A stretch of 64,000 nt of DNA from Chloroflexota bacterium. GTDB lineage: Bacteria > Chloroflexota > Anaerolineae > DUEN01. Below the pieces are notes generated by a model. It did not search any database and had not been told where the DNA came from. It worked only from the letters and a program-made list of their open reading frames with translations. This document shows, one piece after another, positions 27,040-44,800 of the stretch. Each line of letters opens with the position of its first letter. Within the stretch, counting starts at the first letter, position 1. Both the position numbers and the translations under genes were made by a program. The DNA is taken from assembly GCA_013152435.1 (NCBI GenBank), contig JAADGJ010000076.1:62001-126000 (forward strand), written 5' to 3'.

Positions 27040-27052
27040 GGAGGAGTGAGCG

Positions 27053-27373: not shown

Positions 27374-27387
27374 CGAGGTTCGGCTCC

Positions 27388-29085
27388 ATGGACTCGATAC
27401 GGCAGCAGGCTCTGGAATGGTGGCAGAATCTGGCACGCTGGCAGCAGATCACGGCCATTGGGATCGGGGTCGTGGGCCTGGCCCTGGCCCTCTATCTCCT
27501 GGCCGTGGCTCAGGCGCCGGAGTATGCCGTCGCGTTTAGCGGGCTGACGGAGCAGGACGCTGCGGAGATCGTAGACGTGCTGAAGAAGATGAACGTGCCC
27601 TACCGGCTGGCGGGGGATGGCACCGTGATCCAGGTCCCCGCACGCCAGGTGCGTGAGATCCGGTTGGAGCTGGCCCGCCAGGGATTGCCCAAGGGGGGAA
27701 CGGTCGGATTCGAGATCTTTGACACCGGCGAGTTGGGCAATCTGGGGATGACGGATTTCGTGCAGAAGGTGAACTACCAGCGTGCCCTGGAAGGCGAGCT
27801 GGCCCGAACCATCGAGAGCCTGGAGCCGTTGCAGGCTGCCCGGGTTCACATCGTCATCCCGGAGCCGAGCCTGTTCCTGGAGGAGGAGACGAAGCCCAGC
27901 GCCTCCGTGTTGGTCCAGCTGAAGCCGGGACGGCGGCTGGAGCCGGGACAGATCGAGGCGATCACCCATCTGGTGGCCAGCAGCGTGGAGGATCTGGACC
28001 CGGAGCGCGTCACGGTCGTGGACGTGGAGGGCAACGTCCTGCATCGCGAGACGACGGAGTCCGGCGCGCCCGATACGGCGCAGCTCAACGCGATGCGGAT
28101 CGAGCTGCAGCGCAAGTACGAGATGGAAACCCAGGATCGGCTGCAGAGCCTGCTGGATAGGACGCTGGGCCCGGGGCGATCGGCCGTTCAGGTCAGCGTG
28201 GCGATGGATTGGGATCGGTTGGAGACCAGCAGTGAGACGTACAGCCCGGGGAGTGCAGAGGCGGGCGTGCTCAGAAGCTCCCGTATCGTCGAAGAGTACC
28301 AGCCCTCGCCGGAGGAGGGGGTGGGCGGCGTGCCCGGCATCGACAGCAACCAATTGGAGGTCCCGACCTACCAGGGCGTGGTGACCAGCACCACCGAGGG
28401 TGGATACGTGCGCCGGGAGGCCGTGTACAACTACGAGGTCTCCAAGACCGTCCAGAACCTGATCCGGGAGCCGGGGCGAATCAAGCGGCTGTCGGTGGCC
28501 GTGCTCCTTGATGAGAGCATACCGGAAGATGAGCGTAAGGACATCGAGCAGTTGGTGGCGGCCGCCGTTGGGCTGGATCCCTCTCGGGGGGATACGCTGG
28601 CCGTCACCGCCGTGGCGTTCAACCAGGATTATTACGACCAGCAGCAGGAGGCCCTGTTGGCCGCTCAGCGGCACGAGCTGTACATCACCGTCGCCAAGGT
28701 GTTGTCCTCGATCATTGGGCTCATCCTGTTGCTGTTCTTCGTGCGCAGCCTGTTCCGTGACCTGGCGTACCGGCGCCTGTATCCGCAGATGGAATTGATC
28801 CCGCCCACTGGCCCGGTCCCGGTCGCGGCGTTGGAGGCGGCGACCGGCCAGTTGCCCGTCGAGCAGTCGACGTCCGCTCTGGAGGCGGGAGGGACGCTGG
28901 CATCCGATCAGGAGGAACAGGAGGAAGCGGCGCCTGGTGACGAGATAAAGGACGAGGTGGACATCGCCGCCCTGTCCCCGCCCACGAACAAGGAACTGCG
29001 TTATCTGCGGCACCTCACCGCGATGGCCAGGGATAACCCCGACGTCGTGGCGGATGTCATTCGGACATGGTTGAGGGAGGGATAG
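27388..29085 (+). CDS. fliF: Flagellar MS-ring protein FliF
   Basis: The product has 565 residues, a standard length. There are two membrane segments, near 21-43 and near 432-454, with ring-building modules between them. YAVAFSGLTEQDAAEIV near residue 48 and LARQGLPKGGTVGFEIFD near residue 93 are family motifs, and VSKTVQN lies near residue 350. The last residues (MARDNPDVVADVIRTWL) form the FliG-binding tail. FliF forms the ring in the cytoplasmic membrane on which motor and export gate assemble. One base separates it from fliG. Confidence 0.94.
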   Translation: MDSIRQQALEWWQNLARWQQITAIGIGVVGLALALYLLAVAQAPEYAVAFSGLTEQDAAEIVDVLKKMNVPYRLAGDGTVIQVPARQVREIRLELARQGLPKGGTVGFEIFDTGELGNLGMTDFVQKVNYQRALEGELARTIESLEPLQAARVHIVIPEPSLFLEEETKPSASVLVQLKPGRRLEPGQIEAITHLVASSVEDLDPERVTVVDVEGNVLHRETTESGAPDTAQLNAMRIELQRKYEMETQDRLQSLLDRTLGPGRSAVQVSVAMDWDRLETSSETYSPGSAEAGVLRSSRIVEEYQPSPEEGVGGVPGIDSNQLEVPTYQGVVTSTTEGGYVRREAVYNYEVSKTVQNLIREPGRIKRLSVAVLLDESIPEDERKDIEQLVAAAVGLDPSRGDTLAVTAVAFNQDYYDQQQEALLAAQRHELYITVAKVLSSIIGLILLLFFVRSLFRDLAYRRLYPQMELIPPTGPVPVAALEAATGQLPVEQSTSALEAGGTLASDQEEQEEAAPGDEIKDEVDIAALSPPTNKELRYLRHLTAMARDNPDVVADVIRTWLREG

Positions 29086-29086
29086 C

Positions 29087-30115
29087 ATGGCAGCGAGGGA
29101 TGCATCCGCAGCCCGTCTGGATGGGGTGACCAAGGCGGCGGTTTTGCTGATCAGCCTGGGGACGGACCTCTCCGCGGCGGTGCTCCGCCGGCTCGGCGAA
29201 TCCGATGTCGAGCGGTTGACCATGACGATCATGGAGCTCCGGAACGTGGATCCGGACGTCCGATCGAAGGTGCTGGAGGAGGCCTACGAGGACGTTCAGA
29301 CCGCTCAGCTTCCGGACTCCGGCGGCATCAGCTATGTGAAAGCTCTGCTGGAGCGCGCGCTGGGGCCTCAGAAGGCGGAGGAGGTGATCCAGCGGCTGGC
29401 CGCCGAACAGCGGGAGAGGCCCTTCAGCTTCCTGGTGGACGCTGACCCGGTGCAGGTGGCGAACTTCCTGAAGGATGAGCATCCACAGGTGGTCGCCGTG
29501 GTGTTGGCGCATCTGCGCCCGGCGCAATCCGCCAAGATCCTGGCCAACCTGGAGCCCACGCTCCAGACGGATGTGTGTGCCCGCATCGCGGTGATGGACC
29601 GTGCGTCGCCACATGTGCTGCGCGAGGTGGAGCAGCAGCTTCGGAAGAAGCTGGCCACCGTCCTCCTGCGTACCGATGGGGCGTCCGCGGTGGGCGGCGT
29701 GGAGTTCCTGGCGAACGTGTTGAACCAGGTGGACCGGAGCACGGAGAAGCAGATCATGCAGGCGCTGGCGGAGTACGATCCGCAGCTGCACGAGTTGGTC
29801 CAGTCCAAGATGTTCGTGTTCGAAGATCTGCGCCTGCTGGACGACCGCTCGCTGCAGCGTGTGCTGCAGGAGGTGGATCGGCAGGACCTGCTTCTGGCGC
29901 TCCGGGGGGCCAGCGAGGAGATTCGGGAGCTGGTGTACCGCAACCTCTCCAAGCGCGCTGCTCAGCTGTTGAAGGAGGACCTGGCGACCATGGGGCCTGT
30001 CCGCCTGCGCAACGTGGAGGAGGCCCAGCAGCGGATCGTGAACATCGTCCGGCAGCTGGAGGCGGCCGAGGAGATCGTCGTTGCCCGGGGTGGCGAGGAG
30101 GATGTCCTTGTCTAG
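29087..30115 (+). CDS. fliG: Flagellar motor switch protein FliG
   Basis: The product has 342 residues. KAAVLLISLGTDLSAAVLRR near residue 10 is the FliF-binding domain, KDEHPQVVAVVLAHLRP near residue 128 contains the EHPQ motif, and the charged torque helix DDRSLQRVLQEVDRQDLLLA is near residue 255. FliG sits on the MS ring, transmits stator torque and sets rotation sense with FliM and FliN, which are not in this window. GGGAGGG precedes the start. FliH overlaps its end. Confidence 0.95.
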   Translation: MAARDASAARLDGVTKAAVLLISLGTDLSAAVLRRLGESDVERLTMTIMELRNVDPDVRSKVLEEAYEDVQTAQLPDSGGISYVKALLERALGPQKAEEVIQRLAAEQRERPFSFLVDADPVQVANFLKDEHPQVVAVVLAHLRPAQSAKILANLEPTLQTDVCARIAVMDRASPHVLREVEQQLRKKLATVLLRTDGASAVGGVEFLANVLNQVDRSTEKQIMQALAEYDPQLHELVQSKMFVFEDLRLLDDRSLQRVLQEVDRQDLLLALRGASEEIRELVYRNLSKRAAQLLKEDLATMGPVRLRNVEEAQQRIVNIVRQLEAAEEIVVARGGEEDVLV

Positions 30116-30926
30116 CGATCGTGATCGCCGTGCGGGTGATCGCCAGCCGATCTATCCCTTCCCCTTCCATGATGTGGTGGGGCGTGCCATGGAGTTCCGC
30201 CCTCTGTTCCCTGCCTCCGAGCCCGCGCCGGAATCGGAGAGGGCCCCGGAGGAGGCGCCTCAGGAGGAGCCGGAGCCTCAGGTGGATGTGCAGCCCCTGA
30301 TCGAGGAGTGGAAGGCCAAGCTGGCCGAGGTGGATCGCGTGTTGCAACAGGCGCGTCAGCGGGCGGAGGTGCTGGCGAAGGAGGCGGAGGAGCGAGGCTA
30401 CCGGGAGGGGTACGAACGGGGATACGAGGAAGGACAGGCGCTGGGGATGGAAACCGCCCAGCGTTCCCTCGACGATGAGGTGGCGAAGGTACGAGGGATC
30501 GCCCGGGCGATCTCCCAGGCTCGCCAGGAACTGCTGGCCAGCCTGGAGCCGGAGATCGTCTCGTTGGCGCTGGCGATCGCCAAGAAGGTCGTGGGAGACG
30601 AGGCGCTGCGCGACGAGACCGTGATCGCCCACATGGTGCAGAAGGCCGTACGCCAGTTGGGGCGGCGGGGGCCCTATCGCATCCGGCTGAACCCCCGGGA
30701 CGCGCAGCGCCTGATGGATCGTTGGCGGGTGAAGGATGAGCTCGACGGCGCGGAGTGGGAATTGATCCCGGACGAGCGTATCTCGATCGGAGGGTGCGTC
30801 CTGGAAAGCGGCGTCGCCTCCGTGGATGCGCGTCTGGAGACGCAGTTTGACCTGATCCAGCACGCGTTGCTGGAGGGGCAAAACGAGGCGTCGGACCAGG
30901 AGCTGTCGGATGGAGGTCTCGATTAA
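30102..30926 (+). CDS. fliH: Flagellar export ATPase regulator FliH
   Basis: The product has 274 residues. An acidic, Pro-rich N-terminus (residues 35-65) leads to a coiled coil with GYREGYERGYEEGQALGME near residue 100, the Gly-repeat segment typical of FliH. The C-terminal domain has IVSLALAIAKKVVGDEAL and YRIRLNPRDAQRL. It binds the FliI ATPase and regulates export. ATG 30102 overlaps the end of fliG and is favoured over 30081, though an SD is squeezed against it. The end overlaps fliI. Confidence 0.88.
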   Translation: MSLSSDRDRRAGDRQPIYPFPFHDVVGRAMEFRPLFPASEPAPESERAPEEAPQEEPEPQVDVQPLIEEWKAKLAEVDRVLQQARQRAEVLAKEAEERGYREGYERGYEEGQALGMETAQRSLDDEVAKVRGIARAISQARQELLASLEPEIVSLALAIAKKVVGDEALRDETVIAHMVQKAVRQLGRRGPYRIRLNPRDAQRLMDRWRVKDELDGAEWELIPDERISIGGCVLESGVASVDARLETQFDLIQHALLEGQNEASDQELSDGGLD

Positions 30927-32247
30927 CCTGCGCAAGTATCACGAGATCCTTTCCGGGCTGACGCTGCTGCGCTGCCGGGGCCAGGTGGTCCAGGTCATCG
31001 GGCTGGCCATTGAGGCGGAAGGGCTGGCATCGCAGGTCGGCGAGCTGTGCTACGTGTATCCGGCCGGCCGGGATCGCCCCATCGCGGCCGAGGTCGTCGG
31101 GTTCAAATCCGATCGCACCCTGCTGATGCCTCTGGGCGAGATGGAGGGCATCCAGCCCGGCAGCCCGGTGATCGCCACGGGCGGCCCGTTCACCATACCG
31201 GTCGGGCCGGAGCTACTGGGCCGGGTTGTGGACGGGTTGGGACGCCCGCTCGATGGCAAGGGGCCCCTGGTGGGAGCGCAGAAGTCGCCGCTGGATAGCA
31301 CGGCGCCCCATCCGCTCCGCCGCCGGGTGATCTCCGAACCCCTGTCCACGGGGATTCGGGCGATCGATGGGCTGCTGACCTGCGGCAAGGGGCAGCGTAT
31401 CGGGATCTTCGCCGGGAGCGGCGTGGGCAAGAGCACTCTGATGGGCATGATCGCCCGACACGCGGCCTCGGATGTGAATGTGATCGCGCTGATCGGGGAG
31501 CGTGGACGTGAGGTCCGAGAGTTCATCGAGATGAATCTGGGGCCGGAGGGGCTGGCCCGCTCCGTGGTCGTCGTCTCCACCTCGGATCATCCGCCGCTGA
31601 TCCGCATCAAGGGGGCGTGGACGGCGACCGCCATCGCCGAGTATTTCCGGGATCAGGGGATGGACGTGGTGTTCATGATGGACTCCGTCACCCGGTTCGC
31701 CATGGCCCAGCGAGAGGTGGGGCTGGCCATTGGCGAGCCGCCGGCCATGAAGGCGTACCCGCCCTCCGTCTTCGCGCTCCTGCCCAAGCTGATGGAGCGC
31801 ACGGGGGCCAGCGAGACGGGGACTATCACCGGGTTCTACACCGTCCTGGTGGAGTCGGATGACCTGACGGAGCCCATCACGGATACGGTGCGCAGCATCC
31901 TGGACGGACATATCGTGTTGAGCCGTGCGCTGGCCGCCGAGAACCATTACCCGGCCATCGACATCCTCCAGAGCGTGAGCCGGTTGATGCCCAACATCAC
32001 GACGCGAGAGCACCAGCGGGCGGCCGGCCGGCTGCGGGAGGCGCTGGCCACCTACGAGCGGGCGCGTGATCTTATCAACATCGGGGCCTACGTTTCCGGG
32101 AGCAATCCTCAGATCGATTATGCGCTGGAGAAGCTGCCCGACATCCAGGGCTTCCTGCGCCAGGAGGATGATGAGGTCACTCCGCTGGAGGAGTCCATCG
32201 CCCGTCTGCTGGAGATGTTCCCGCCGACGCAGGCGGAGGCCGCATAG
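30910..32247 (+). CDS. fliI: Flagellum-specific ATP synthase FliI
   Basis: The product has 445 residues. Walker A is FAGSGVGKSTLMGM near residue 167, Walker B is VVFMMDSVTRFAMAQREVGL near residue 253, and PPSVFALLPKLMERTG follows, all as in FliI. It powers or gates export of rod, hook and filament subunits with FliH and FliJ. The start overlaps the fliH stop region with AGGAG ahead of it, which indicates translational coupling. Confidence 0.95.
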   Translation: MEVSINLRKYHEILSGLTLLRCRGQVVQVIGLAIEAEGLASQVGELCYVYPAGRDRPIAAEVVGFKSDRTLLMPLGEMEGIQPGSPVIATGGPFTIPVGPELLGRVVDGLGRPLDGKGPLVGAQKSPLDSTAPHPLRRRVISEPLSTGIRAIDGLLTCGKGQRIGIFAGSGVGKSTLMGMIARHAASDVNVIALIGERGREVREFIEMNLGPEGLARSVVVVSTSDHPPLIRIKGAWTATAIAEYFRDQGMDVVFMMDSVTRFAMAQREVGLAIGEPPAMKAYPPSVFALLPKLMERTGASETGTITGFYTVLVESDDLTEPITDTVRSILDGHIVLSRALAAENHYPAIDILQSVSRLMPNITTREHQRAAGRLREALATYERARDLINIGAYVSGSNPQIDYALEKLPDIQGFLRQEDDEVTPLEESIARLLEMFPPTQAEAA

Positions 32248-32289
32248 ATGAGACTCGGGCGCGTCAGATCGAGCCTGTGAGGTGCGAGG

Positions 32290-32739
32290 ATGAGGAAGCG
32301 ATTTCGCCTGGAGTCCGTGCTGTCCTACCGTGAGTCATTGGTAGAGGCCCGCGAGATGGAGCTGGCGGAGGCCGTCAAGATGCAGGCCCACGCGGAGGCG
32401 ATCTTGAGGGCGTTGCAGGAGAGGCGCGTGCGCACCTTGCGGGAGATCCGGGAGATGCGCAGCGATGCTCGATTGGACCAGATGGGCCTGTTGACGGCCG
32501 AATCCTATCTGGCGCGCCTGGAGGCGGACCTGGAACAGCAGGCGGCGGTCGTTCGAGAGCTGGCGCAGCGGACGGAGGCCTGCCGTGAGGCGCTCACCGA
32601 GGCTCTGCAGGAGAAGAAGAAGATCGAGCGCTTGAAGGAGCGCGAGGAGCAGCGCCTGGCCCAGGAGGAAGCCCGGGCGGAGCAGGTCTTTGTGGACGAC
32701 TTGAACATCACCCGGCATAACCGAAGAGAGGTGTTGTGA
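32290..32739 (+). CDS. fliJ: Flagellar export chaperone FliJ
   Basis: The product has 149 residues and is almost wholly coiled coil. The beginning (MRKRFRLESVLSYRESL) and the end (EEARAEQVFVDDLNITRHNR) are typical of FliJ. Position directly after fliI supports the call. It acts as the central stalk of the export ATPase and in recycling chaperones. Sequence identity in this family is low, so the call rests partly on gene order. Confidence 0.85.
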   Translation: MRKRFRLESVLSYRESLVEAREMELAEAVKMQAHAEAILRALQERRVRTLREIREMRSDARLDQMGLLTAESYLARLEADLEQQAAVVRELAQRTEACREALTEALQEKKKIERLKEREEQRLAQEEARAEQVFVDDLNITRHNRREVL

Positions 32740-32743
32740 GCTG

Positions 32744-33280
32744 ATGGAAGGCATCATCGGGGGCATTGGGGCACACTTCACGTTGGCGAGGATTCAGACG
32801 GCGATCTTGCAGCAGTTCGCCGAGCGGCTGGCCCGCTCCGATCAGGCGCGTCGCACCCCGTCCGGTGCAAGGGCGCGCTCCGGGATGGGGCCAGTCCCCT
32901 TCGAGGAATTGATCGAGGCGGCGGCGAAGCGGCACGATCTGCCCGCGCAGCTGATCAAGGCGGTGATCTGGGCCGAGTCGAACTTTGACCCGAAGGCGGT
33001 CTCCTCGGCCGGCGCCAAAGGGCTCATGCAGCTCATGGATGCTACCGCGAAGGCGTTGGGGGTCGAGGATAGCTTCGATCCCGCGCAGAACATTGAGGGT
33101 GGAGTGACCTACCTGCGGCGACTGTTGGACCGCTATGGCGACGTCTCCCTGGCGCTGGCGGCCTACAACGCGGGGCCGGGTGCCGTGGATCGCTATGGCG
33201 GCATCCCTCCCTACGCGGAGACGCAAACCTACGTGCGGCGGGTGTTGGAAGCCGCCGGCGTGGGGGAGTGGATGGCATAG
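32744..33280 (+). CDS. Lytic transglycosylase of the flagellar operon
   Basis: The product has 178 residues. An SLT domain covers about residues 50-175, with the catalytic Glu in VIWAESNFDPKAVSS, then GAKGLMQLM and ALAAYNAGPGAVDRYGG. It cleaves peptidoglycan glycan strands, and here probably opens the wall for the rod, the job of FlgJ in other bacteria. No signal peptide is visible, so it may use the flagellar export route or another path. It lies four bases after fliJ and ten bases before flgB. Confidence 0.88.
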   Translation: MEGIIGGIGAHFTLARIQTAILQQFAERLARSDQARRTPSGARARSGMGPVPFEELIEAAAKRHDLPAQLIKAVIWAESNFDPKAVSSAGAKGLMQLMDATAKALGVEDSFDPAQNIEGGVTYLRRLLDRYGDVSLALAAYNAGPGAVDRYGGIPPYAETQTYVRRVLEAAGVGEWMA

Positions 33281-33290
33281 GAGGAAGGGG

Positions 33291-33713
33291 ATGAAGGTCT
33301 TCTGGAACGATGCGACCAGCGTTCTGCTGCAAGAGGCCCTGACGGGGCTCTCGCTTCGGCAACAGGTGATCAGCAACAACCTGGCGAACATCAGCACACC
33401 GGGGTTTAAGGCATCCGAGGTGATCTTCGAGTCCGAGCTACAGCGGGCGCTGGAGGCTCAGCGGGGAGAGGTCGTCGCGCTCCGCGTGACCCATCCGGCC
33501 CACATCTCCCTCACTCCGCAGTCGGCGTTGGACGTACGCCCCATCGTGCGGGAGCGCTCGGGCACCACCCTGCGGGCGGATAGGAACAACGTGGACCTGG
33601 AGAAGGAGATGGCCACCCTGGCCGAGACGGCGATCCGCTACCAGGCCTCAGCGCTGGTGCTGTCTCGCAAGCTGGCTTTGTTGCGATCCATCATCGCCGG
33701 AGGGCGAAGGTAA
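33291..33713 (+). CDS. flgB: Flagellar basal-body rod protein FlgB
   Basis: The product has 140 residues. QQVISNNLANISTPGFKASE near residue 24 is the rod-family N-terminal signature, and VDLEKEMATLAETAIRYQAS near residue 103 is the C-terminal rod helix characteristic of FlgB. It forms the innermost rod with FlgC. GAGGAAGGGG precedes ATG 33291. Its place after the transglycosylase gene, apart from flgC, is unusual. Confidence 0.93.
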   Translation: MKVFWNDATSVLLQEALTGLSLRQQVISNNLANISTPGFKASEVIFESELQRALEAQRGEVVALRVTHPAHISLTPQSALDVRPIVRERSGTTLRADRNNVDLEKEMATLAETAIRYQASALVLSRKLALLRSIIAGGRR

Positions 33714-33725
33714 GATCGGGGTGAG

Positions 33726-36700
33726 ATGAGAGGACGGAAGCATCTCCTTTGGGGTTGGGTGCGTGCGAGGTCGGCCGTGATCGGGTGGCTGATCCTTGCC
33801 TTGCTCCCTATCGGCATGCCGATGAGGGCCCCGGCCCAGGAGGTGCCGGTCCGCACCCTGACGATCCAGACGGCCGGGCCGTCCCGGGTCCAGGTGGCGG
33901 ACACTTACATCACGGCGGCCGATCCCGACCGATCTCATGATGCCGAGCCGATCCTGTCCCTGTCCGGCCGGTCGGTCGCCCTGCTGCGGTTTGACCTGAG
34001 CGAGCTGCCCGCGGACGCGGAGGTGGCGAGCGCGAGCCTGGTGTTGTGGGTGGACGGCCGCAGCGCCCCGCTGCCCCTGGATGTGGCGGCTTATCCGCTG
34101 GCCCGGCCGTGGGAGGCGGGGGCGACCTGGCGCGAGGCTGCGCCTGGACGTCCGTGGGGGCGGCCTGGCGCGGTCGGTGAGGCCGATCGCGGCGACGCCG
34201 TGGCGCACCAGAGACTGGACGGGGTTGGCCGATGGTACACGTGGGACGTGACCGCCGCCGTACGCCAACAGGCGGGGCGGCCGGATCGAGATCTGCACCT
34301 GGCGTTGGCCGCGGATTTCGGCGGGACGGTGGAGTATTACCTCGCCAGCTCGGAGTGGAACGACGTGGGGCATCGCCCCCGGTTGACGATCCGATACCGC
34401 GAGCCGGTCGAGCTTCAGGTGGCCTCGGTTCGTACGGATCTGGTTTACGGGAAGGAGTACTTCCCTGCCATGCCCTATGTCATGTATGACTGGCGCAATC
34501 GCAACTGGCAGGCCGAGGCTCCCCAGCGAGGCCCCATCGGGAGTCACATCGAGTTCACATGGGAGGATATCAACCCTGCCCCAGGACAGTTCGATTGGTC
34601 CAAGTTCGATGAGTATCTGCGCGTCGCTCGGACCCAACGGGTGACGCTTCCGGACGGCTCTTCCATATATAAGCCGGTGATGTTTACCTTGATGCTGGCC
34701 GCCAGCGGTGAGGAGGGGCGCTTCCGGGATTTCACACCGACCTGGGTCTACGACGCGATGGATGGGCGTCCGGAGCTGGACGGGCGTCCGGTGGGATATG
34801 TGGTCCAGCCGGAGGGGTGCGCTCCAGCGGCCGTGCCCCTCTATGACGATCTGGCGTGGCAATCGGCCCTGGCCTCTGCCATCGCTGCCTTCGGCGCCCG
34901 CTACGATCAGAACCCACTGGTGGCGGGGATCTGGATCGGCGCCGGCCTGGATGATGAGACGCAGCCGGCCAAGCGGGTGGGATCGTGTGATTACCCGACG
35001 GAGCTGGCCCGATACCTGGATTGTGAAGCCTATATGCGGTTTCTGGATCGGCTGATGGGATGGTACGCGGATGCCTTCCCACATAAGCCGCTGTGGATTC
35101 AAGCGGCCCCAAGCGCCTGCGTGGGCCGCTCCGGTCCCTGGTCCAGGAGGCGCATCATGTTGAGGGCGGCCAAATTGGGGATCGGGTACAAGGCGAACGC
35201 CCTTCAGCCCGACATGGTGACGGCCGTCGGGTATCTGAACAGCACCGGATGGCAGAAGATGGACACGGCAGATCGCTTCGCGGGGCAGGTGCCCATCGCT
35301 TTTGAGCCCGCCTTTAGCAATCCTGTCGGCGGGGAAGACCCCGTTGAGTACGCGTATTGGATGGTACACAACGCGCTGGCTCATCACGCGACGTTCATCG
35401 ACTTGCAGGATGATTGGCTGGGCGACCTGGATCAGGTGCCGGAGGTATGGAGAACCATGCAGGAAAGTTTGAATCGAACGGCTGCGGATGCGCCGGCGGT
35501 GTGGATCGTGCTGCGCGATGCGGAATGCGCGCCGGTGATGTGGAAGAACAGCGGGAACGGGTGCGATCCGGGGGATTGGAGCTTTTACCTGTATCGCTCG
35601 GACGATCTGCCGGGCAATCGCACCGTGCATTTGCGAGAGGAGGATCTGCCGCGGACGGCCGCGGATCAGCCGTTCGGTCGGCATGCGCGGCGCACGGACG
35701 AGGCGAGCGGCAATCCGTGGATCTCCCTGGATGTGGATGATGCCTGGCAATTCGCCGGGCAGCTCCCTGTGGCCTATGGCGGGCAGGTTCAGTACGAGGT
35801 GAGCGTGTGGTACCTGGATCAGGGTACCGACGTGTGGCTCCTGGAGTATGCCGACCCGGAGGGCACGCTTCGCCAGGTTCGCGTGGAGAAGACCGATTCG
35901 GGGAGATGGCGTGAGGCGGTATGGGTCCTGGACGATCTCTTCCTGGCGGACATGCTGCCCGGCGGCATGGACCTCCGGCTGAACTCCGCCGGGGACGGCG
36001 ATGATATCTTCCATAAGATCACGATTCGCGGGATTCGTGTGCCCAAGGAGCCGGTTGCTGCGACGCCCACACCTGGCGTGGGCTCGACGCCGTCGCCTTC
36101 GCCTACGCTGGCGGTCGGCGGGACCGTGACGCCCACACCGACGCCGACACCGGAGAGGGTGTCGACTCCTACGCCTACTCCCACGTCGGCGGTGCAGGTG
36201 ATCGTCGTGCCACCCAGCCCAACGCCTACGCCGACGGTGGAGGTGATTGGTGTGCTGCCCAGCTCGACGCCCACGCCAACGCCGCAAAAGGAGATCATCG
36301 TGTTCTCCGAGCCGCTGGCCCTGACGCCCACACCCACGGCTGCTGCGCCGATGTATGGGCGGGCGGGGGATGCCTCTCCGCCGTCCCGGGTGATGGCCAA
36401 GGTGGAGGCGCTGTGGCCCTCCGCTCCAGGGCACATCAACGCGACGGTGTATCTGTTCGCCGATCGATCGCTGGATCCGCCACCGTGCGACTGGGAGCCC
36501 ACGGTGCTCCTCTGGGGGGCTGTTGGCGATGACCCGGCCCGGATGCTGGCGGTAGGGCGCAAGCGGATGGCTCAGGAGCGAGGGCGCACGTTCCCCGCCT
36601 GGGACTTCACCGGCGTGAACATCGACTCGTTGCAGCGGTCCGGGGAGCCGATGCACTTCTTCGCCTCGGTGGAGGGCGTGGACACGGTGTGGAACGTGGT

Positions 36701-37190
36701 GTCCATGGGCCAGGATGCGCGCACGCTGGGGGTCGCCGAGCCGGTGCCGGCGGGCCTGCTGACGTCGCCGCCGGCGGAGGTGGACGCGAAGATCTTCATC
36801 CTCTGGCCGCACGGCGGCGCGCCCGTCTCCGAGGCGAAGCGGGCCAACCTGACGGCGATCCTCCTTGAGACGGGAACGCAGCGGGCGTTTCCGGCGAAGG
36901 CTCCCTGGCTCCCGACGGTCCGACTTCATTGGTCCATCAACCACGGGGTGGACCTGACCGGGGGGAAGGGGATGATCGGTGTGCCGAGGGAGGTGAGCCG
37001 CGGTGGCATGCGCTATGTCGTCTGGGATTTCAACAACGTCGACGTGCGGGCGGCGCGCAATCCCAATAATCGGATGTACTTCTGGCTGAGCGTAGATGGC
37101 ATCCGGACGAATACATCCGTCTGGGTGCACAGCGCGGATGGGCGCCCGATCCTTCAGACGGCGGATCTGCCGGCCAGAAGTTGTCGATAG
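33726..37190 (+). CDS. Large exported multi-domain protein with DNRLRE-like and glycosidase-like domains
   Basis: The product has 1154 residues. A signal peptide covers about 1-38 (GWLILALLPIGMPMRAPAQ). Residues 57-225 resemble a DNRLRE beta-sandwich (LLRFDLSELPADAEVASASL). Residues 238-590 look like a TIM-barrel glycosidase (EFTWEDINPAPGQFDWSKF); catalytic residues are not certain. A beta-rich domain follows, then a Thr-Pro linker near 777-875 and two similar C-terminal domains (VEALWPSAP and IFILWPHGG starts). It lies between flgB and fliK, 12 bases after flgB. It is probably a surface or extracellular glycan-acting protein; its role in motility is unknown. Confidence 0.72.
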   Translation: MRGRKHLLWGWVRARSAVIGWLILALLPIGMPMRAPAQEVPVRTLTIQTAGPSRVQVADTYITAADPDRSHDAEPILSLSGRSVALLRFDLSELPADAEVASASLVLWVDGRSAPLPLDVAAYPLARPWEAGATWREAAPGRPWGRPGAVGEADRGDAVAHQRLDGVGRWYTWDVTAAVRQQAGRPDRDLHLALAADFGGTVEYYLASSEWNDVGHRPRLTIRYREPVELQVASVRTDLVYGKEYFPAMPYVMYDWRNRNWQAEAPQRGPIGSHIEFTWEDINPAPGQFDWSKFDEYLRVARTQRVTLPDGSSIYKPVMFTLMLAASGEEGRFRDFTPTWVYDAMDGRPELDGRPVGYVVQPEGCAPAAVPLYDDLAWQSALASAIAAFGARYDQNPLVAGIWIGAGLDDETQPAKRVGSCDYPTELARYLDCEAYMRFLDRLMGWYADAFPHKPLWIQAAPSACVGRSGPWSRRRIMLRAAKLGIGYKANALQPDMVTAVGYLNSTGWQKMDTADRFAGQVPIAFEPAFSNPVGGEDPVEYAYWMVHNALAHHATFIDLQDDWLGDLDQVPEVWRTMQESLNRTAADAPAVWIVLRDAECAPVMWKNSGNGCDPGDWSFYLYRSDDLPGNRTVHLREEDLPRTAADQPFGRHARRTDEASGNPWISLDVDDAWQFAGQLPVAYGGQVQYEVSVWYLDQGTDVWLLEYADPEGTLRQVRVEKTDSGRWREAVWVLDDLFLADMLPGGMDLRLNSAGDGDDIFHKITIRGIRVPKEPVAATPTPGVGSTPSPSPTLAVGGTVTPTPTPTPERVSTPTPTPTSAVQVIVVPPSPTPTPTVEVIGVLPSSTPTPTPQKEIIVFSEPLALTPTPTAAAPMYGRAGDASPPSRVMAKVEALWPSAPGHINATVYLFADRSLDPPPCDWEPTVLLWGAVGDDPARMLAVGRKRMAQERGRTFPAWDFTGVNIDSLQRSGEPMHFFASVEGVDTVWNVVSMGQDARTLGVAEPVPAGLLTSPPAEVDAKIFILWPHGGAPVSEAKRANLTAILLETGTQRAFPAKAPWLPTVRLHWSINHGVDLTGGKGMIGVPREVSRGGMRYVVWDFNNVDVRAARNPNNRMYFWLSVDGIRTNTSVWVHSADGRPILQTADLPARSCR

Positions 37191-37292
37191 AGGAAGTGAT
37201 CCGCGTTCGGGAGGTGACCGCTTGTCGGAGGAAGCGCGTGCAGGGAAGAGGCTGGCGACCTCATATTCTCCTGGCAGAAAGGAGGTGATTGG

Positions 37293-39362
37293 GTGCAAGT
37301 CAGTGATCTGAACATCTTTTCCCTGATCCAGCCGGCCATGGGAGAGGCCCTCATTGGCGCCGAGGCCTCCATGACGGCCGCGTCGGCCACCGTGGGCGAT
37401 TTCCGCCCCATGCTGTGGGCTTTGTTCGCGGCCGCCGGGGATGGCCCGGGCCAGGGCGACGATGCGGCCGCCATGGCGCCGGGGGAGGACATGGCGCAGG
37501 ACGCCCGTCCTGAACGATCGATCGGGCGGAAGGAGGTGGTGCCTGCAGGCGATCTGGCGCTGTCCTGCGTGGGGGTCAGTGTGTTCCCCCCAAGTGTCCA
37601 ACCGGAGCTGGTGAGCGGTGGGCCCGTCGCGTCGGCCTTCCATGCGTCGGAGGCTGGGGTGGAGGGCGTGGAGGCGCTGGCGGATGTCCTCCAGGCGGGG
37701 GGACGTGGCCCGCATCCGGGGGCGGGCAAGGTCGCACCCCGGGCGTGGCCTGACGGCCTATCCGCCCAGACCGTGTCCCCTCCGGAGGGGGAGACGACCT
37801 GGATGGGAGCGCCGTTCGTGGCGTCCACTCCGAGTATGTCGCCCGTAGGCGTGGAGGGAAAGCCGGAGGAAGCCTCCCAGGCCCTACCGCAAGGGCAGCT
37901 GGGTGGACAGGAGGGCATCCGAGAGGGTGTCGTCCAGCCCTCTGTCGCCCCATCGATGACGCTCGCGGCCGAGCCGAGCTCCGCTCTGGAGGCGCCGATG
38001 TCGGAGATGCCGAAGGGGGCGCAGCTGCCCGAGGGATCTCAGGGCGTCATCTCTGGCGGCTCCGATGGCTCACCGGGGACAGGCCGGAAGTCTGGTGCCT
38101 CGAAGCCGGTGGGGCGGCCATCCATCTGGGCGGATCCTGTCGTGTCATCGCCGGGACGTACGGAGGGCTCGGCTGCCCAGTCCTCGGGTGAGGAGCCATC
38201 GATGGGAGTGGAGTCGGGACGCCTCCCAAGTGTGAGGGACGCGATCGGGATGCGGGTGCCCCGATGGAGAAGGACGCTCCTGGCGGGGCGGAACATCCCA
38301 CCCGTCGGGAGGCCCGAGATGGAGTCCGGCCCCGCTCGTGTGGACGTCCCCGACGCGGGGAAGCCGATGCGAGAAGAAAAGCCGTCTGGAGTGGAGGCCG
38401 TTGGGCTTCCCCGGACGGAGGCGGCGCGGCCCTCTGGGGCAAGCGTTCCGCCGGTGGTCGGTGATGGGACGGGGGAGCCGGCGCGGCCGGTCTCTTCCGG
38501 ACGTGTGACAGCGCCTGTTCGGGGGGAGACCCCAGTGGTCCCGGACGCGGCGAAGACGTCCCCTCCGGTGGGCGTCGGGGGGCGAGATCCCAGGGATGTG
38601 CCATCACCCGCTGCGCGGGCGGATGTCGGGCTCGACTCCATGGGAGATCGGGGGATAGCGGCCCAACGCGGGCACGTGAACAGCACCCTGATGAATCCTC
38701 GCCCGGCTGAGATCCCGGCGGCTGTCGAGGCCGGACGTGATCCGGGGATGGCTTACTCCCGTCCCGGAGGTGAGCGTCGCGAGCCGGGAGCCCGGCAGGC
38801 CCCAGGCCCCGCATCCGTCTCGTGGGCGGAGGCGGCGCCCATTCCGGGGGCGAAGAACCCGGTTGCCAGATCCGCTGAGGTCGGGGCCGGGCTCGTGAGC
38901 TCCGATGGGCGAGAGTTCAACATCGCGGACACGCTGGAGGAACTGGTGGGCCAGATCCGGGTGGCCTGGCGGCGTGGCGAGTCGGAGTGCCGGCTGCAGC
39001 TTCATCCGGAGCAGCTGGGCCGCCTGGAGGTGCGTCTGGTGTCTGGTCGCAATGGGATGACCCTGCTCATGCGGACGGAGACGGCCGAGGCGCAGGCGGT
39101 CATCCAGTCGAACCTGGATCGTCTGCGCACAGGGCTGGAGGGGCACGGCATCCACCTGGAGCGGTGTGAGGTCGTGGCCGGCCAGATGGACGCCGGGGGC
39201 GCGAGCTGGCAGAACGGCGGCGGGCAGGGGCCCTTGTGGGACCAGCCTGAGCTGCCGGGGTATGTCCCAGCGGCGTACACACGCCCCACCACCGAACGCA
39301 TCACCGGGGCGCGTCGGCCGGCATATCGGCGTCCTGATGCGCTGATCGATCTGGAGGTCTAG
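37293..39362 (+). CDS. fliK: Flagellar hook-length control protein FliK
   Basis: The product has 689 residues, longer than the usual 350-500. The first 540 residues are a low-complexity Pro/Gly/Ala/Val-rich ruler. The conserved Flg_hook domain lies near 545-640, with CRLQLHPEQLGRLEVRL and LDRLRTGLEGHGIHL. FliK measures the hook and switches export to filament subunits. The start is GTG at 37293 behind AAAGGAGGTGATT, a nearly perfect anti-SD match. FlgD follows after 11 bases. Confidence 0.86.
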   Translation: MQVSDLNIFSLIQPAMGEALIGAEASMTAASATVGDFRPMLWALFAAAGDGPGQGDDAAAMAPGEDMAQDARPERSIGRKEVVPAGDLALSCVGVSVFPPSVQPELVSGGPVASAFHASEAGVEGVEALADVLQAGGRGPHPGAGKVAPRAWPDGLSAQTVSPPEGETTWMGAPFVASTPSMSPVGVEGKPEEASQALPQGQLGGQEGIREGVVQPSVAPSMTLAAEPSSALEAPMSEMPKGAQLPEGSQGVISGGSDGSPGTGRKSGASKPVGRPSIWADPVVSSPGRTEGSAAQSSGEEPSMGVESGRLPSVRDAIGMRVPRWRRTLLAGRNIPPVGRPEMESGPARVDVPDAGKPMREEKPSGVEAVGLPRTEAARPSGASVPPVVGDGTGEPARPVSSGRVTAPVRGETPVVPDAAKTSPPVGVGGRDPRDVPSPAARADVGLDSMGDRGIAAQRGHVNSTLMNPRPAEIPAAVEAGRDPGMAYSRPGGERREPGARQAPGPASVSWAEAAPIPGAKNPVARSAEVGAGLVSSDGREFNIADTLEELVGQIRVAWRRGESECRLQLHPEQLGRLEVRLVSGRNGMTLLMRTETAEAQAVIQSNLDRLRTGLEGHGIHLERCEVVAGQMDAGGASWQNGGGQGPLWDQPELPGYVPAAYTRPTTERITGARRPAYRRPDALIDLEV

Positions 39363-39373
39363 GAGGTAGGCGT

Positions 39374-39808
39374 ATGGATGAAACCCCTTGGGCAGTTGCA
39401 GCGGCCGGTCTCATGGCGGCTGCCCCTCAGGCGCAGGAGAGCCGTCCGGAGAGCGACGAGCGCTCCTTGCTGGGGATCGACCATGAGGCCTTTCTCAAGC
39501 TTCTGATCGCCCAGATCCGTCACCAAGATCCGTTGTCCCCCATGGACAGCGGGGAGTTCCTGTCGCAGCTGGCCGAGCTCACGACGCTGGAGCAGATGTG
39601 GCGCATGAACGAGAGCTTGCAGGCCTTCATGTCGCAACAGCAGCTCCTGCAGGCCAGCGCTATGATCGGGCGCACGGTGCAGGGGACGGATGACACCGAC
39701 CAGCCCTTCCAGGGCGTGGTGCAGGGTGCCCTGGTCCGTGATGGCACGGTGACCCTGGATCTGGGAGATCGACAGGTGCCGCTGAAGTGGGTCACTTCGG
39801 TGCGTTGA
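39374..39808 (+). CDS. flgD: Flagellar hook-capping protein FlgD
   Basis: The product has 144 residues, a short form that lacks the larger FlgD outer domains. DHEAFLKLLIAQIRHQDPLS near residue 36 and EFLSQLAELTTLEQM near residue 61 are the FlgD N-terminal motifs, and SAMIGRTVQG near residue 94 starts the remaining beta part. It caps the growing hook. TAGGAGGTAGG precedes the start. Confidence 0.93.
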   Translation: MDETPWAVAAAGLMAAAPQAQESRPESDERSLLGIDHEAFLKLLIAQIRHQDPLSPMDSGEFLSQLAELTTLEQMWRMNESLQAFMSQQQLLQASAMIGRTVQGTDDTDQPFQGVVQGALVRDGTVTLDLGDRQVPLKWVTSVR

Positions 39809-39828
39809 GGTATGGAGTGAGCGTGCAT

Positions 39829-40221
39829 ATGGTTGAGAAGATCACACTGCCCATCGCGTCGGAGTCCGTGCGGGGAGCGACGTCTGCCCGGCGCGAGAGC
39901 GCCTCACGGCCGCCGGACTCGGGGCGACCCGACTTCGCCGCCGTCCTGCGTCAGGAGATGGAGGAGGAGGGGCTTCGCTTCTCCCGTCATGCGACCTCTC
40001 GTCTCCAGGCGCGCGGGATTGAGTTGGATGCGGCGCAGCGGGATCGCATCGAGAGGGCTGTGGAGGCGGCTCGCCAGAAGGGGGCGAAGGAGTCGCTGAT
40101 CCTGCTGGACGATCTGGCGTTCGTGGTGAGCGTCCGCAATCGCACCGTGATCACGGCCATTGATGCCGCTCATCGCAGATCGAACGTGTTCACGCACATC
40201 GACAGTGCGGTGCTCGCCTGA
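39829..40221 (+). CDS. Flagellar operon protein, TIGR02530 family
   Basis: The product has 130 residues. RFSRHATSRLQARGIEL near residue 46 and SLILLDDLAFVVSVRNRTVI near residue 87, then NVFTHIDSAV at the end, match the short flagellar operon protein found between flgD and flgE in Firmicutes and other monoderm-type loci. The role is not established; gene position suggests hook assembly. ATG 39829 is chosen with GGAGTGA upstream; a GTG at 39823 is also possible. Confidence 0.83.
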   Translation: MVEKITLPIASESVRGATSARRESASRPPDSGRPDFAAVLRQEMEEEGLRFSRHATSRLQARGIELDAAQRDRIERAVEAARQKGAKESLILLDDLAFVVSVRNRTVITAIDAAHRRSNVFTHIDSAVLA

Positions 40222-40228
40222 TCGGATC

Positions 40229-40248
40229 GCTCGGGCCGGTGCCCGAGC
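40229..40248 (+). terminator. Hairpin after the TIGR02530-type gene
   Basis: GCTCGGGC pairs with GCCCGAGC around CGGT. Only a short TTT follows, so it may weaken rather than end transcription before flgE. Confidence 0.4.
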
Positions 40249-40353
40249 TTTGGAGGAAGACGGAATCCGTTGCGTACGGCCGGACCTCTTGCAGGGGGCC
40301 GACGCAACAACATGACATAACGAATCACAAAACCCCTTCAGGAGGTAGTCACG

Positions 40354-41589
40354 ATGTTGCGCTCTATGATTTCTGCTTCGTCTGCTCTGCGGTTCCACCA
40401 GACGTTCATGGACGTGGTGGCGAACAACATCGCCAACGTGAACACGGTTGGGTTCAAGAGCAGCCGGATCACGTTCCAGGAGATGATGAACCAGGTCATC
40501 AGCAGCGGTGTCGGGCCCGATCCGGCGGCCAATCGCGGCGGGATCAACCCGATACAGATCGGCCTGGGCATGATGCTGGGAGGCGTGCAGACGCAGTTCC
40601 TCCAGGGTGGGCTGCAGGCCACCGGGCGGAACAGCGACCTGGCCATTCAGGGAGAGGGGTTCTTCATCTACCAGGGCCCCAATCAGCAGTATTACTCACG
40701 AGACGGCACGCTGGATATCTCCACCGACGGGAAGCTGGTGAATCCGAACACGGGGATGTACATCCTCGGATGGCAGGCCGTGAACGGTAGCGTCGATCCC
40801 TCAGGGCCGCTGACCCCGATCACCATCGCGTTGGGCAGCGGGGTCACCGCCCAGCAGACGGAGAACGTCACCTTCGGCGGGAATCTGAATTCCTCCGCCG
40901 ATACCGGTGAGGCGACCTCCGTCACCTTTGAGGTCTACGACTCTATGGGGACGTCTCACTACATCACGCTGACCTTTGAGAAGCAGGCCGCCAATACGTG
41001 GAGCGTCACGGCCAGCACCAATGATCCCGATGTCACCATCACGAACCCCACCCTTACCGACATCGAGTTCGATGCGCAGGGGCAGGTGACCGCTGGTGGC
41101 ACGCAGACGATGCAGATCCAGCTGGCCAATGGGGCGGACACCCCGCAGGACATCAACCTGAACCTGAGCGGCCTGACCCAGCTGGCCGACCTGAGCGAGG
41201 TGCGGGCCATCTCGCAGGACGGCAACGCGGCGGGCGCCCTCATCGGCTTCGATGTCGCGGCCAGCGGCATGGTGATGGGGGTGTACTCCAACGGGCTGCG
41301 CCAGGCCGTGGGGCAGATCGCCCTGGCGACGTTCCGCAACCCGGCCGGCCTCATCAAGATCGGGCAGAACCTCTTCGCCGAATCGGCCAACACGGGCGAT
41401 CGCGTGGTGGGTGTGGCCGGAACCGGGGAGCGTGGGCAGATCAACGCGGGCTATCTGGAGATGTCCAACGTGGACCTGGCCACGCAGTTCACGGACATGA
41501 TCCGGGCCCAGCGTGGGTTCCAGGCCAACTCCCGGGTGATCACCGCCTCCGATCAGATGCTGACGGAGCTGGTGAACATCGTCCGGTAG
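40354..41589 (+). CDS. flgE: Flagellar hook protein FlgE
   Basis: The product has 411 residues. VVANNIANVNTVGFKSSRIT near residue 22 is the rod/hook N-terminal motif, NSDLAIQGEGFFIY near residue 93 is the FlgE/F/G signature, and the C-terminus has YLEMSNVDLATQFTDMIRAQ and GFQANSRVI. The long middle domain fits the hook subunit rather than the FlgF or FlgG rod. It polymerises into the universal joint. CAGGAGG precedes the start. It is the last flagellar gene before the large glycosidase-like gene. Confidence 0.92.
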   Translation: MLRSMISASSALRFHQTFMDVVANNIANVNTVGFKSSRITFQEMMNQVISSGVGPDPAANRGGINPIQIGLGMMLGGVQTQFLQGGLQATGRNSDLAIQGEGFFIYQGPNQQYYSRDGTLDISTDGKLVNPNTGMYILGWQAVNGSVDPSGPLTPITIALGSGVTAQQTENVTFGGNLNSSADTGEATSVTFEVYDSMGTSHYITLTFEKQAANTWSVTASTNDPDVTITNPTLTDIEFDAQGQVTAGGTQTMQIQLANGADTPQDINLNLSGLTQLADLSEVRAISQDGNAAGALIGFDVAASGMVMGVYSNGLRQAVGQIALATFRNPAGLIKIGQNLFAESANTGDRVVGVAGTGERGQINAGYLEMSNVDLATQFTDMIRAQRGFQANSRVITASDQMLTELVNIVR

Positions 41590-41597
41590 TGGATATA

Positions 41598-41620
41598 GGG
41601 GCGATCCGCCGGATCGCCCC
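41598..41620. repeat. REP-like palindrome after flgE
   Basis: GGGGCGATCC pairs perfectly with GGATCGCCCC around a three-base loop. No T-run follows. It could act as a rho-independent barrier or be one of the widespread GGGGCGA-type palindromes. Confidence 0.6.
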
Positions 41621-41662
41621 ATAAGCACTTGCTCAAACGATGCGAAGGCGTGAGCTTGCGTT

Positions 41663-41882: not shown

Positions 41883-44800
41883 ATGAAAGTGAAGACGATG
41901 CGCATTCGTCCCGTGATGGAGTGGGTCATGCGATTGATCGCGCTGGCTTTGTTGGCGAGCGGGGGGATCGCGTGGTCGGTGGATGCGCAGGATGCGGCCC
42001 CACTTCCTCTTAGCGAGTACCCTAGGCCGCCGCAGGATAACGGGCTGGGGATCCACTGGACGACTAACGTCTACGGCCAGTCCCCTGAGGTGGTGGATTA
42101 CTTCATCGCCGAGATGGAGGCCATGGGGATCAAGTGGGTAAAGTTCCTGAACGATGGCACGGATGGGCGCCACAACGAATATCTGATCCAACAGTTGGTG
42201 GCCCACGGGATGATGCCCATCATGAGGATCTACCAGCCGTGCAACAAGCCGTTGGACCTCGGCTCGCTGCGTCGGCTGGTCCGACACTATCGCCCCATGG
42301 GAGTGTACTACTACGAGCTGTTCAACGAGCCCGACCTGGAGGGCGAGGCGGGCGGCTGGTGTGGCGGTGGGCATCCGGACCCGGAGCGCCTGTTCCGCAT
42401 GTGGCTGCCGGCCGCTCGTGTGATCCAGGAGGAGGGCGGGTTCCCCTCGCTTCCGGCCATGTTCCCGCCGTCGATCAAGGACCCCAACTGGCAGAACAGC
42501 TTCTTCATCCGCTTCTTGCGGCTCATCAAGGAGACGGGGAACACCGACGTCCTGTATCGCTCCTGGGGGGCTGTGCACAACTACTTCCTGAACCATCCCG
42601 TTCGCTACCCTTACGACGAGGTCAATCTGAAAGGCACGCCGCTCTCCCAGGAAGAGATCGAGCGGTATGGCCTCTCTCCGGCCGAGGTGCAGGCGATCAA
42701 CCACGCCCGTCAGATCGCTCGCCGGCCGCGATCGGAGGGGGGCTACTACGTGGGGGACACCATCGATGAGGACAATAACGGCTTTCTCCAGTTCATAGCC
42801 TATCGGAATCGCTTCTATGAGATCTTCGGATTTGAGATCCCGCTCATCAGCACCGAGGGGGGAGCCACCGTTGGATCCAGTGAGGACCCTCGGTATCCCA
42901 AGGTGACCCCGGCCTTGCAGGCGGAGATGACCATTGAGGCGTTCGAGTACATGCTCGACGAGGCGCCTCCCTACTACTTCGCGTTCACGAGCTGGCTGAT
43001 CGGCGAGCGGGCTCTGGACAATCCCAACCCCACCTGGGAGTCCTGGGCCTGGTACCAGAATCGAGAGGGGCGTCACCTCCCCGTGGTGGATATGCTCAAA
43101 TCCCATCCACGGCGTGGCGAGACGCGGCGCAACGCGCCGGTGGCGACGAGGCCGCTCTGGACGCCACGTGTCGCGTCGGATCCGGCCCCAACGCCGACGC
43201 CGACCCCCGTGCAGGAGGAGGTGGCGGAGGCTGCCGCCCTGCCCAGGCCATTGAACCCGCCTCCTGCCGCGGGAGCGCTGCCGCTGAGCGCGTACCCGCG
43301 CCCTCCGCGAGATAACGGATGGGGGATTCACTGGACCCCCACGCTGTTCAGCCAACCGCCGGAAGTGGTGGATCGCCTGGTGGGGGAGATCGAGGACATG
43401 GGGCTGCGATGGGTCAAGCTGATGCAGCCCGATGAGCCCAAGCTGGAGCATACCTACCTGATCGAGCAGCTCACGCAGCGGGGGATCATGCCCGTCTTGC
43501 GGATCTATCGCCCCTTCAATGATCCCTACGAGCATCTGGACGTGATCGTGCGAGAGGGGATCGCCCGCGGGGTGTATTACTACGAGCTATACAACGAGCC
43601 GAACATCGCGGGGGAGGCCGGGGGATGGCGCCCGGGTGAGGAGATCAGCGTTGCCCGGATCGCGGACCTGTGGATCCCCGCGGCGCGACAGATCGCCGCC
43701 CTGGGCGGATATCCGGGGCTGCCGACGCTGGCCCCTGGCGGCTCCTACGACGACATGAAGTTCCTGGCCGAGTTCCTGGATTTGCTCAAACAGCGCGACG
43801 CCCTGGATACGCTGGACCGCGCTTGGGTGCCTTTGCACAACTATTTCTTCAACCACCCGCTCAACTATCCGGAGGATCCGGTCAATCTATGGAGCGTGCT
43901 GCTGACGCCCGCCGAGATCAGCGAACGAGGGCTCAGCGCGGCCGACGTGGAGGCCATCAATCACGCCCGTCAGATCTCTCGTTTGCCTCGCGAGCAGGGT
44001 GGTTATTACGTGGGGGACACCATCGACAAGGACTCCAACGGCTTTCGGAAGTTCGAGGCGTATCGGAACATCCTCTACACCCGGATCGGCCGGGAGATCC
44101 CGATCATCACCACGGAGGGTGGCGCGATCGTGGGAGCGCGTGAGGACCCTCGTTATCCTCCCGTGACCGAGGCGGACGTCGTACAGCGGACCCAGGCGGC
44201 CTTCCAGTACATGCTAGACGAGGCCCCGCCGTACTATTTCGCCTTCATGCCGTGGCTGTTGAGCAATCTGGACAGCGGCGGGAGCAATCCGGCGTGGGAG
44301 GGAGCTGCCTGGTATCAGGCCGGGGGCGGGCCACGTCCTGTGGTGCTGGCCATCAAGCGGCTCGCGGCCCAGGGGAGGACCCGACGGCATGTCCCTGTGG
44401 ACAACGGGTACGTGCTGGCCACGCCCACGCCTACCGTCGCCCCGACCCCCGCGCCGGCCACGGGAGCTCCGGCGGGGGCATCCACGGCGCCTTTGCCGGC
44501 TGTGCTGCCCAGCGTCAGCCAGTCCTATCTGCTGATCCCGACCTATCCGTACGACCAGGCGTTGGTCCCCACATCGCCGGACGACCCGATCTATCCCTAT
44601 CCCCGGCTGGATTTCGACCGGCTGGGCCCACCCACGCCGCGTACCTACCAGGCGGTGATCCTGGAGAACGCTTACACGCGGCTGGTGATCCTGCCCGAGT
44701 TGGGGGGGCGGATCTATCAGTGGATCGACAAGGCCACCGGCCGCTCCCTGGTGTACCAGAACCCGGTCATCAAGCCGACTCGATGGGGGTATCGCGGCTG

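What the first reader, a model, noticed from the sequence alone, without database searches (positions are those of the whole stretch)
33726..37190. 1154-residue secreted protein inserted between flgB and fliK
It has a signal peptide, a DNRLRE-like domain, a barrel domain with EFTWEDINPAPG, a Thr-Pro linker and two similar C-terminal domains, yet sits only 12 bases after flgB. The mixture of a Sec-exported surface protein and rod/hook genes in one probable transcript is unusual.
Basis: partly seen in the sequence, partly recalled or inferred. Interest (0 to 1): 0.6.

Follow-up and report, generated by a model that had tools for sequence, protein, structure and literature searches.

The report
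Secreted glycosidase-like protein in flagellar operon
A group of little-studied Chloroflexota bacteria carries, inside the operon that builds the flagellum's rod and hook, a large secreted sugar-cutting-type protein, one of three such genes in that operon, suggesting that their flagella are made together with enzymes that act on the carbohydrate coat of the cell.

Summary
Window 33726-37190 (+) encodes 1154 aa: Sec signal peptide, CBM96/DNRLRE domain, clan-GH-A-like barrel with a conserved Glu pair (E411, E527), beta domain, Thr-Pro linker and two homologous Ig-like C-terminal domains. It starts 12 bases after flgB, before fliK.

It is not a stray insertion. All four sampled genomes of its family have it directly after flgB, with fliK directly after it where the contig continues (3 of 4). 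One ortholog lacks the barrel. Its domains also occur in many secreted proteins of other Chloroflexota without flagellar linkage.

The wider pattern is more surprising. The same operon begins with a second glycosidase (25230-26555), which has no Sec signal but has an FxxxL motif at residues 36-40 like the gate recognition motif of exported rod/hook proteins. It lies next to flgC in 22 of 25 flagellated genomes of the class. In six genomes of other Chloroflexota classes it occupies the focal gene's slot after flgB. A third, Sec-secreted glycosidase follows flgE.

Best reading: a Sec-exported modular glycosidase, co-expressed with the rod and hook, acting on extracellular glycan around the emerging flagellum. 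Genomics is firm; substrate and flagellar role are inferred.

The parts
33726..37190 (+). focal gene: 1154-aa Sec-exported modular protein between flgB and fliK
33726..33839 (+). Sec signal peptide, residues 1-38 (inferred cleavage APA|QEV)
   Evidence: hydrophobic segment residues 17-31, also in three orthologs
33891..34394 (+). CBM96 / DNRLRE carbohydrate-binding-type domain, residues 56-223
   Evidence: PF24517 E 1.7e-10, NF033679 E 5.6e-17, both over cut-off
34473..35471 (+). clan GH-A-like barrel, residues about 250-582; candidate catalytic residues E411 (34956-34958) and E527 (35304-35306)
   Evidence: AF2 mean pLDDT 83.9 over residues 226-795; Foldseek best hits GH35 beta-galactosidases, E about 1e-9, 12% identity; E527 invariant and E411 at least 90% in 15 homologs. 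Absent from the G003 ortholog
35493..36041 (+). beta-rich accessory domain after the barrel, residues about 590-772
   Evidence: AF2 model
36078..36380 (+). Thr-Pro-rich linker, residues about 785-885
36381..37187 (+). tandem Ig-like C-terminal domains (886-1012 and 1013-1154), ending PARSCR; no Pfam family
   Evidence: AF2 mean pLDDT 93.3; Foldseek Ig-type beta sandwiches; C-terminal in 34 of 42 complete proteins
25296..26555 (+). GHa: conserved flagellar-cluster glycosidase, no Sec signal, FxxxL motif at residues 36-40 counted from ATG 25296 (longest ORF starts GTG 25230), NEP and TE(A/G)G motifs
26599..33713 (+). flgC, fliE, fliF, fliG, fliH, fliI, fliJ, SLT lytic transglycosylase, flgB: co-directional, small gaps or overlaps
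37293..41589 (+). fliK, flgD, flagellar_put protein, flgE
41883..46253 (+). GHb: Sec-exported protein with two GHa-like glycosidase domains, DUF5107 and a Big_1-like domain

Best explanation
The gene encodes a Sec-exported, extracellular, modular glycosidase that is a fixed member of the rod/hook operon in one Anaerolineae family. SHOWN by sequence: domain order, signal peptide, conserved Glu pair in a barrel, C-terminal Ig-like pair, conserved position, co-directional close packing with flgB. INFERRED: it is transcribed with the basal-body genes, leaves by Sec independently of the flagellar type III route, binds surface or matrix glycan through CBM96, is held at the surface or in the matrix by its C-terminal Ig-like pair, and its barrel trims that glycan around the emerging flagellum. 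It would complement two other glycosidases of the same operon: GHa, probably exported through the flagellar channel, and GHb, exported by Sec.
For: Position directly after flgB in 4 of 4 family genomes, fliK directly downstream in the 3 whose contigs continue. Intact Glu pair E411/E527 in the expected strand-4/strand-7 places of a GH35-like barrel; the barrel is about 79-80% identical between the own genome and G001 or G002, the best-conserved region. CBM96 over the curated cut-off. GHa next to flgC in 22 of 25 flagellated class members, and directly after flgB in six genomes of other classes. GHa and flagella co-occur: 10 of 11 genomes with strong hits carry flgC against 46 of 400 overall, hypergeometric 1.6e-9, and the eleventh has flgB/flgD/flgE beside it. 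GHb near flgE in every resolvable GHa-positive genome and in none of three GHa-negative ones. FlgI is absent from 13 genomes while flagellin is present in 12, which fits a monoderm flagellum that must cross peptidoglycan and, in the one motile Chloroflexota imaged, an S-layer (PMC10284905).
Against: The G003 ortholog keeps the slot but has lost, or never had, the barrel, so catalysis is not needed at this locus in every member. Other flagellated Anaerolineae have flgB followed directly by fliK, so this gene is not needed for a flagellum. Paralogs with the same barrel and C-terminal pair lie away from flagellar genes in the same genome. No substrate, transcript or localisation data. The barrel scores below the GH42 cut-off. 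Genomes within one family are not independent for position.
Confidence: 0.5

Rival explanations
1. Surface or matrix adhesin: the CBM96 domain and the Ig-like C-terminal pair are the working parts, binding the cell to polysaccharide when it becomes motile or settles; the barrel is an optional ligand-recognition or relic module.
For: The G003 ortholog retains CBM96, linker and Ig pair but no barrel. The Ig pair is the same C-terminal module on many unrelated secreted Chloroflexota proteins.
Against: Where present, the barrel is the best-conserved part of the protein and keeps both candidate catalytic glutamates. The neighbouring GHa also keeps catalytic motifs.
Confidence: 0.25
2. Passenger: one of many Anaerolineae polysaccharide-degradation proteins that landed between flgB and fliK in the family ancestor and stayed by descent, with no flagellar function.
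For: The barrel, CBM96 and Ig pair are widespread at non-flagellar sites. The gene is missing from other flagellated class members.
Against: Position kept across three genera in four genomes. In six genomes of other classes the same slot holds another glycosidase, and two further glycosidases flank the same gene run.
Confidence: 0.2
3. Structural part of the flagellum, for example a bushing that replaces the missing P and L rings.
For: FlgI is absent from 13 genomes; the protein is Sec-exported, as ring proteins of diderms are (general knowledge).
Against: Present in one family only, while other flagellated class members lack both it and FlgI. No rod, hook or ring domain. Gram-positive flagella need no such rings (general knowledge).
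Confidence: 0.05

Closest known systems
GH35 / GH42 beta-galactosidases (clan GH-A), e.g. PDB 8faa, 7kmn, 5jaw
   Same: Barrel fold, EF-W--I-P--G-F-W entry motif, Glu pair in the strand-4/strand-7 positions
   Different: About 12% identity; below the Pfam GH42 cut-off; embedded in a CBM96 / Ig-like architecture in a flagellar operon
CBM96 / DNRLRE domain (alginate CBM family, PMC9971899; surface-protein domain, PMC2447325)
   Same: N-terminal domain over the Pfam and NCBIfam cut-offs
   Different: Ligand unknown here; the protein is not an alginate lyase by any match
FlgJ and rod-associated lytic enzymes that open the wall for the rod (PMC4752226)
   Same: A glycan-cleaving enzyme encoded with the rod genes
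   Different: The focal protein is Sec-exported, has no GH73 or SLT domain and no rod-cap domain. The operon already has a separate SLT enzyme (32744-33280). GHa is the better functional parallel
Flagellinolysin / FlaMP enzymatic flagellins (PMC5595980)
   Same: Enzyme activity tied to flagella
   Different: There a metallopeptidase is inserted in flagellin; here separate glycosidase-like proteins are encoded among rod/hook genes

Membership tests
CBM96 (PF24517) / DNRLRE (NF033679) | profile score over the curated cut-off | tested here: met
   41.4 bits against 26; 62.3 bits against 34
CBM96 (PF24517) / DNRLRE (NF033679) | binding of alginate or another polysaccharide | not testable with these tools
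   needs protein
Clan GH-A glycoside hydrolase | (beta/alpha)8 barrel | tested here: met
   AF2 model and Foldseek hits to GH35, GH39 (PslG) and GH10 enzymes
Clan GH-A glycoside hydrolase | acid/base Glu after strand 4 and nucleophile Glu at strand 7 | tested here: met
   E411 at least 90% and E527 invariant in 15 homologs; positions fit model strands 174-179 and 299-303; inferred, not assayed
GH42 (PF02449) or GH35 (NF051902) | score over the curated cut-off | tested here: not met
   11.8 bits against 21 for GH42; 13 against 500 for GH35
Flagellar axial (rod/hook) protein | Flg_bb_rod / Flg_bbr_C domains and type III export | tested here: not met
   no such domain; N-terminal Sec-type signal peptide instead
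FlgJ / SLT wall-opening enzyme | GH73 or SLT domain | tested here: not met
   no match in the focal protein; SLT is a neighbouring gene
Known C-terminal surface anchor (SLH, LPXTG and similar) | recognisable anchor domain or motif | tested here: not met
   no Pfam domain in 886-1154; C-terminus PARSCR without a hydrophobic tail
[quoted passage not shown]
   FADVL at residues 36-40 from ATG 25296; F and L invariant in 22; SFxxxL in 9 of 9 homologs not used to derive it, 0.3 expected from shuffles; criterion from PMC8983047 (FlgD GRM 36-FLTLL-40), the FxxxPhi form of the motif from general knowledge
Early flagellar type III substrate (for GHa, not the focal protein) | actual export through the flagellar channel | not testable with these tools
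   needs an export assay

The most novel reading that the evidence does not exclude
Many flagellated Chloroflexota carry a dedicated flagellar glycan-cutting set: a type III-exported TIM-barrel glycosidase (GHa) delivered through the growing rod, plus Sec-exported partners (GHb, and in this family the focal protein), which together open or trim the glycosylated S-layer or sheath so that the flagellum can pass. This would be an outer-coat counterpart of FlgJ.
Probability: 0.3. Interest if true: 0.8.

Novelty: new variant of a known kind. Interest (0 to 1): 0.6.

Why it matters
How flagella cross the coats outside peptidoglycan in monoderm bacteria with S-layers is little studied, and flagella in Chloroflexota had been seen directly only in Tepidiforma as of PMC10284905. 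A glycosidase that is part of most flagellar clusters of the sampled class, with a probable type III export motif, would add an enzyme class to the flagellar apparatus and is easy to test. The C-terminal Ig-like pair is a candidate unnamed surface-attachment module, seen almost only in Chloroflexota.

Tried and rejected
Single-sequence PDB search of the whole protein gave only weak hits. Profile search of the C-terminal pair against PDB found nothing useful; Foldseek gave generic Ig folds with low whole-length TM-scores, probably because of domain orientation, so no functional relative is claimed. GHa found no PDB relative at E 0.01 and no Pfam family over cut-off. Promoter/terminator scan of 25000-42000: no sigma-70-like promoter and three terminator-like sites, fewer than shuffles give and none in the gaps on either side of the focal gene, so uninformative. 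Rejected: assembly chimaera (synteny in four MAGs); a minus-strand gene over the locus (codon-position GC). Three paper searches for a prior report of a glycosidase in Chloroflexota flagellar clusters found none; the library holds open-licence papers only.

Full report
CHECK OF THE OBSERVATION. The ORF 33726-37190 (+) is real and as described. It begins 12 bp after flgB and ends 102 bp before fliK, in the run GHa-flgC-fliE-fliF-fliG-fliH-fliI-fliJ-SLT-flgB-FOCAL-fliK-flgD-flagellar_put-flgE-GHb, all on the plus strand. Gene names rest on Pfam and NCBIfam; fliF, fliG and fliI are named from sequence and from their conserved order.

ANATOMY. Residues 1-38 form a Sec signal. Residues 56-223 are CBM96/DNRLRE, over both curated cut-offs. 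Residues about 250-582 form a barrel: AlphaFold2 from 15 homologs gave mean pLDDT 83.9 and pTM 0.84, and Foldseek against the PDB ranks GH35 beta-galactosidases first, E about 1e-9 at 12% identity. E527 is invariant and E411 at least 90% conserved among the 15; in the model E411 follows strand 174-179 (protein residues 399-404) and E527 lies in strand 299-303 (524-528), the clan GH-A arrangement. A beta domain follows (about 590-772), then a Thr-Pro linker, then two homologous domains (27% identity, BLASTP 7e-12). The pair models with mean pLDDT 93.3 as two Ig-like sandwiches.

CONSERVATION OF POSITION. Four genomes of the family were available: the window's own, G001, G002 and G003. In all four the focal gene directly follows flgB. 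In the own genome and G003 fliK follows; in G001 the gene is split over two contigs, the second leading into fliK; in G002 the contig ends inside the gene. G003 encodes a 603-aa version with CBM96, linker and Ig pair but no barrel. Among the other flagellated class members whose flgB-fliK interval could be read, G014, G153, G340, G371 and G381 have no such gene there, and G149 has a 152-aa ORF.

DOMAIN RELATIVES ELSEWHERE. In the own genome 16 matches in total include a paralog with barrel and Ig pair, apparently split over contigs C78 and C6. Of 120 relatives, 43 match some domain. Among 44 proteins that hold the C-terminal module it ends within 10 residues of the C-terminus in 34 of the 42 that are complete at that end, often as PxxSC(R). 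All named carriers but one are Chloroflexota. A module of this pattern is a plausible surface- or matrix-attachment element; that is an inference.

THE WIDER SYSTEM. GHa is a barrel-type protein with invariant NEP and TE(A/G)G motifs and no Sec-type hydrophobic segment. FlgC is found in 25 of 396 class genomes, and GHa lies next to flgC in 22 of these; the exceptions are G201, G371 and G381. In six genomes of other Chloroflexota classes (G551, G421, G565, G530, G607, G453) the GHa relative lies directly after flgB, followed by fliK or a fliK-like ORF where resolved: the focal gene's slot. In G579 it follows SLT and a flgB match that the ORF call overlaps. In 400 phylum genomes, 11 hold strong GHa hits (E below 1e-85); 10 of them have FlgC, against 46 of 400 overall (hypergeometric 1.6e-9, a figure that ignores shared ancestry), and the eleventh has flgB, flgD and flgE beside it. 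Weaker hits in G405, G632 and G035 are in genomes without FlgC and are probably paralogs. In the otherwise variable N-terminal region of GHa, F and L of an SFxxxL motif are the invariant residues. Nine homologs outside the class, not used to derive the motif, all have SFxxxL; shuffles predict 0.3 of 9 (related sequences, so not nine independent events). Counted from ATG 25296 the motif FADVL is at residues 36-40, the place of the gate recognition motif in FlgD, which docks early substrates at FlhB (PMC8983047). GHb, with a Sec-type segment, two GHa-like domains and DUF5107, follows flgE, sometimes after one or two other genes: own, G001 and G003, and in reduced or split form G014, G149, G153, G324 and G340. 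It is absent after flgE in G371, G381 and G201, which also lack GHa. In G153 and G340 the next sizeable gene again carries the C-terminal Ig-type domain.

ENVELOPE. FlgI is absent from 13 flagellated genomes, flagellin present in 12. This fits Palmer et al. (PMC10284905), who found FlgH and FlgI missing in nearly all Dehalococcoidia and imaged peptidoglycan plus an S-layer in motile Tepidiforma.

HOW IT MOST LIKELY WORKS. Shown: architecture, position, conserved putative catalytic pair, association of glycosidase-type genes with the flagellar cluster. Inferred: co-transcription, Sec export, retention through the C-terminal module, glycan binding by CBM96, hydrolysis by the barrel around the emerging flagellum. 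The barrel-less G003 version keeps an adhesin role open, and the many non-flagellar paralogs keep a passenger role open.

LIMITS. The genomes are draft assemblies and those named are MAGs; the family sample is four genomes; contexts were assigned by tblastn with window proteins plus mechanical ORF calls, and some intervals ended at contig edges, so not every genome could be scored for the flgB-fliK slot. No expression, substrate or localisation evidence exists here.

Noticed in passing
25230-26555 (likely start 25296): GHa: glycosidase-type protein with a type III-like FxxxL motif, next to flgC in 22 of 25 flagellated class members; in six genomes of other Chloroflexota classes the relative sits directly after flgB. 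Possibly more interesting than the focal gene.
   Followed up: partly
41838-46253: GHb: Sec-type signal, two GHa-like barrels, DUF5107 and a Big_1-like domain, after flgE; co-occurs with GHa.
   Followed up: partly
36381-37187; loci L115-L153: Unnamed tandem Ig-like module, at the C-terminus of 34 of 42 complete carriers, often ending PxxSC(R), nearly Chloroflexota-restricted; N-terminal or internal in a minority (L134, L135, L136, L140, L149).
   Followed up: partly
L106:4877-8101 and L107:7572-9929: In family f38 a protein with a bacterial SH3 domain and the same C-terminal Ig-type domain lies close after GHb, so the module recurs beside flagellar genes in a second family.
   Followed up: partly
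7390-7593, 24929-25130, 62634-62915: Dispersed intergenic repeat family, also seen in other contigs of the genome (L010, L013, L014, L015).
   Followed up: no
L175:6668-8323 (G565): The GHa relative here carries an extra stretch resembling an NlpC/P60-type domain (FDCSSFTRW, seen by eye) before the glycosidase domain.
   Followed up: no
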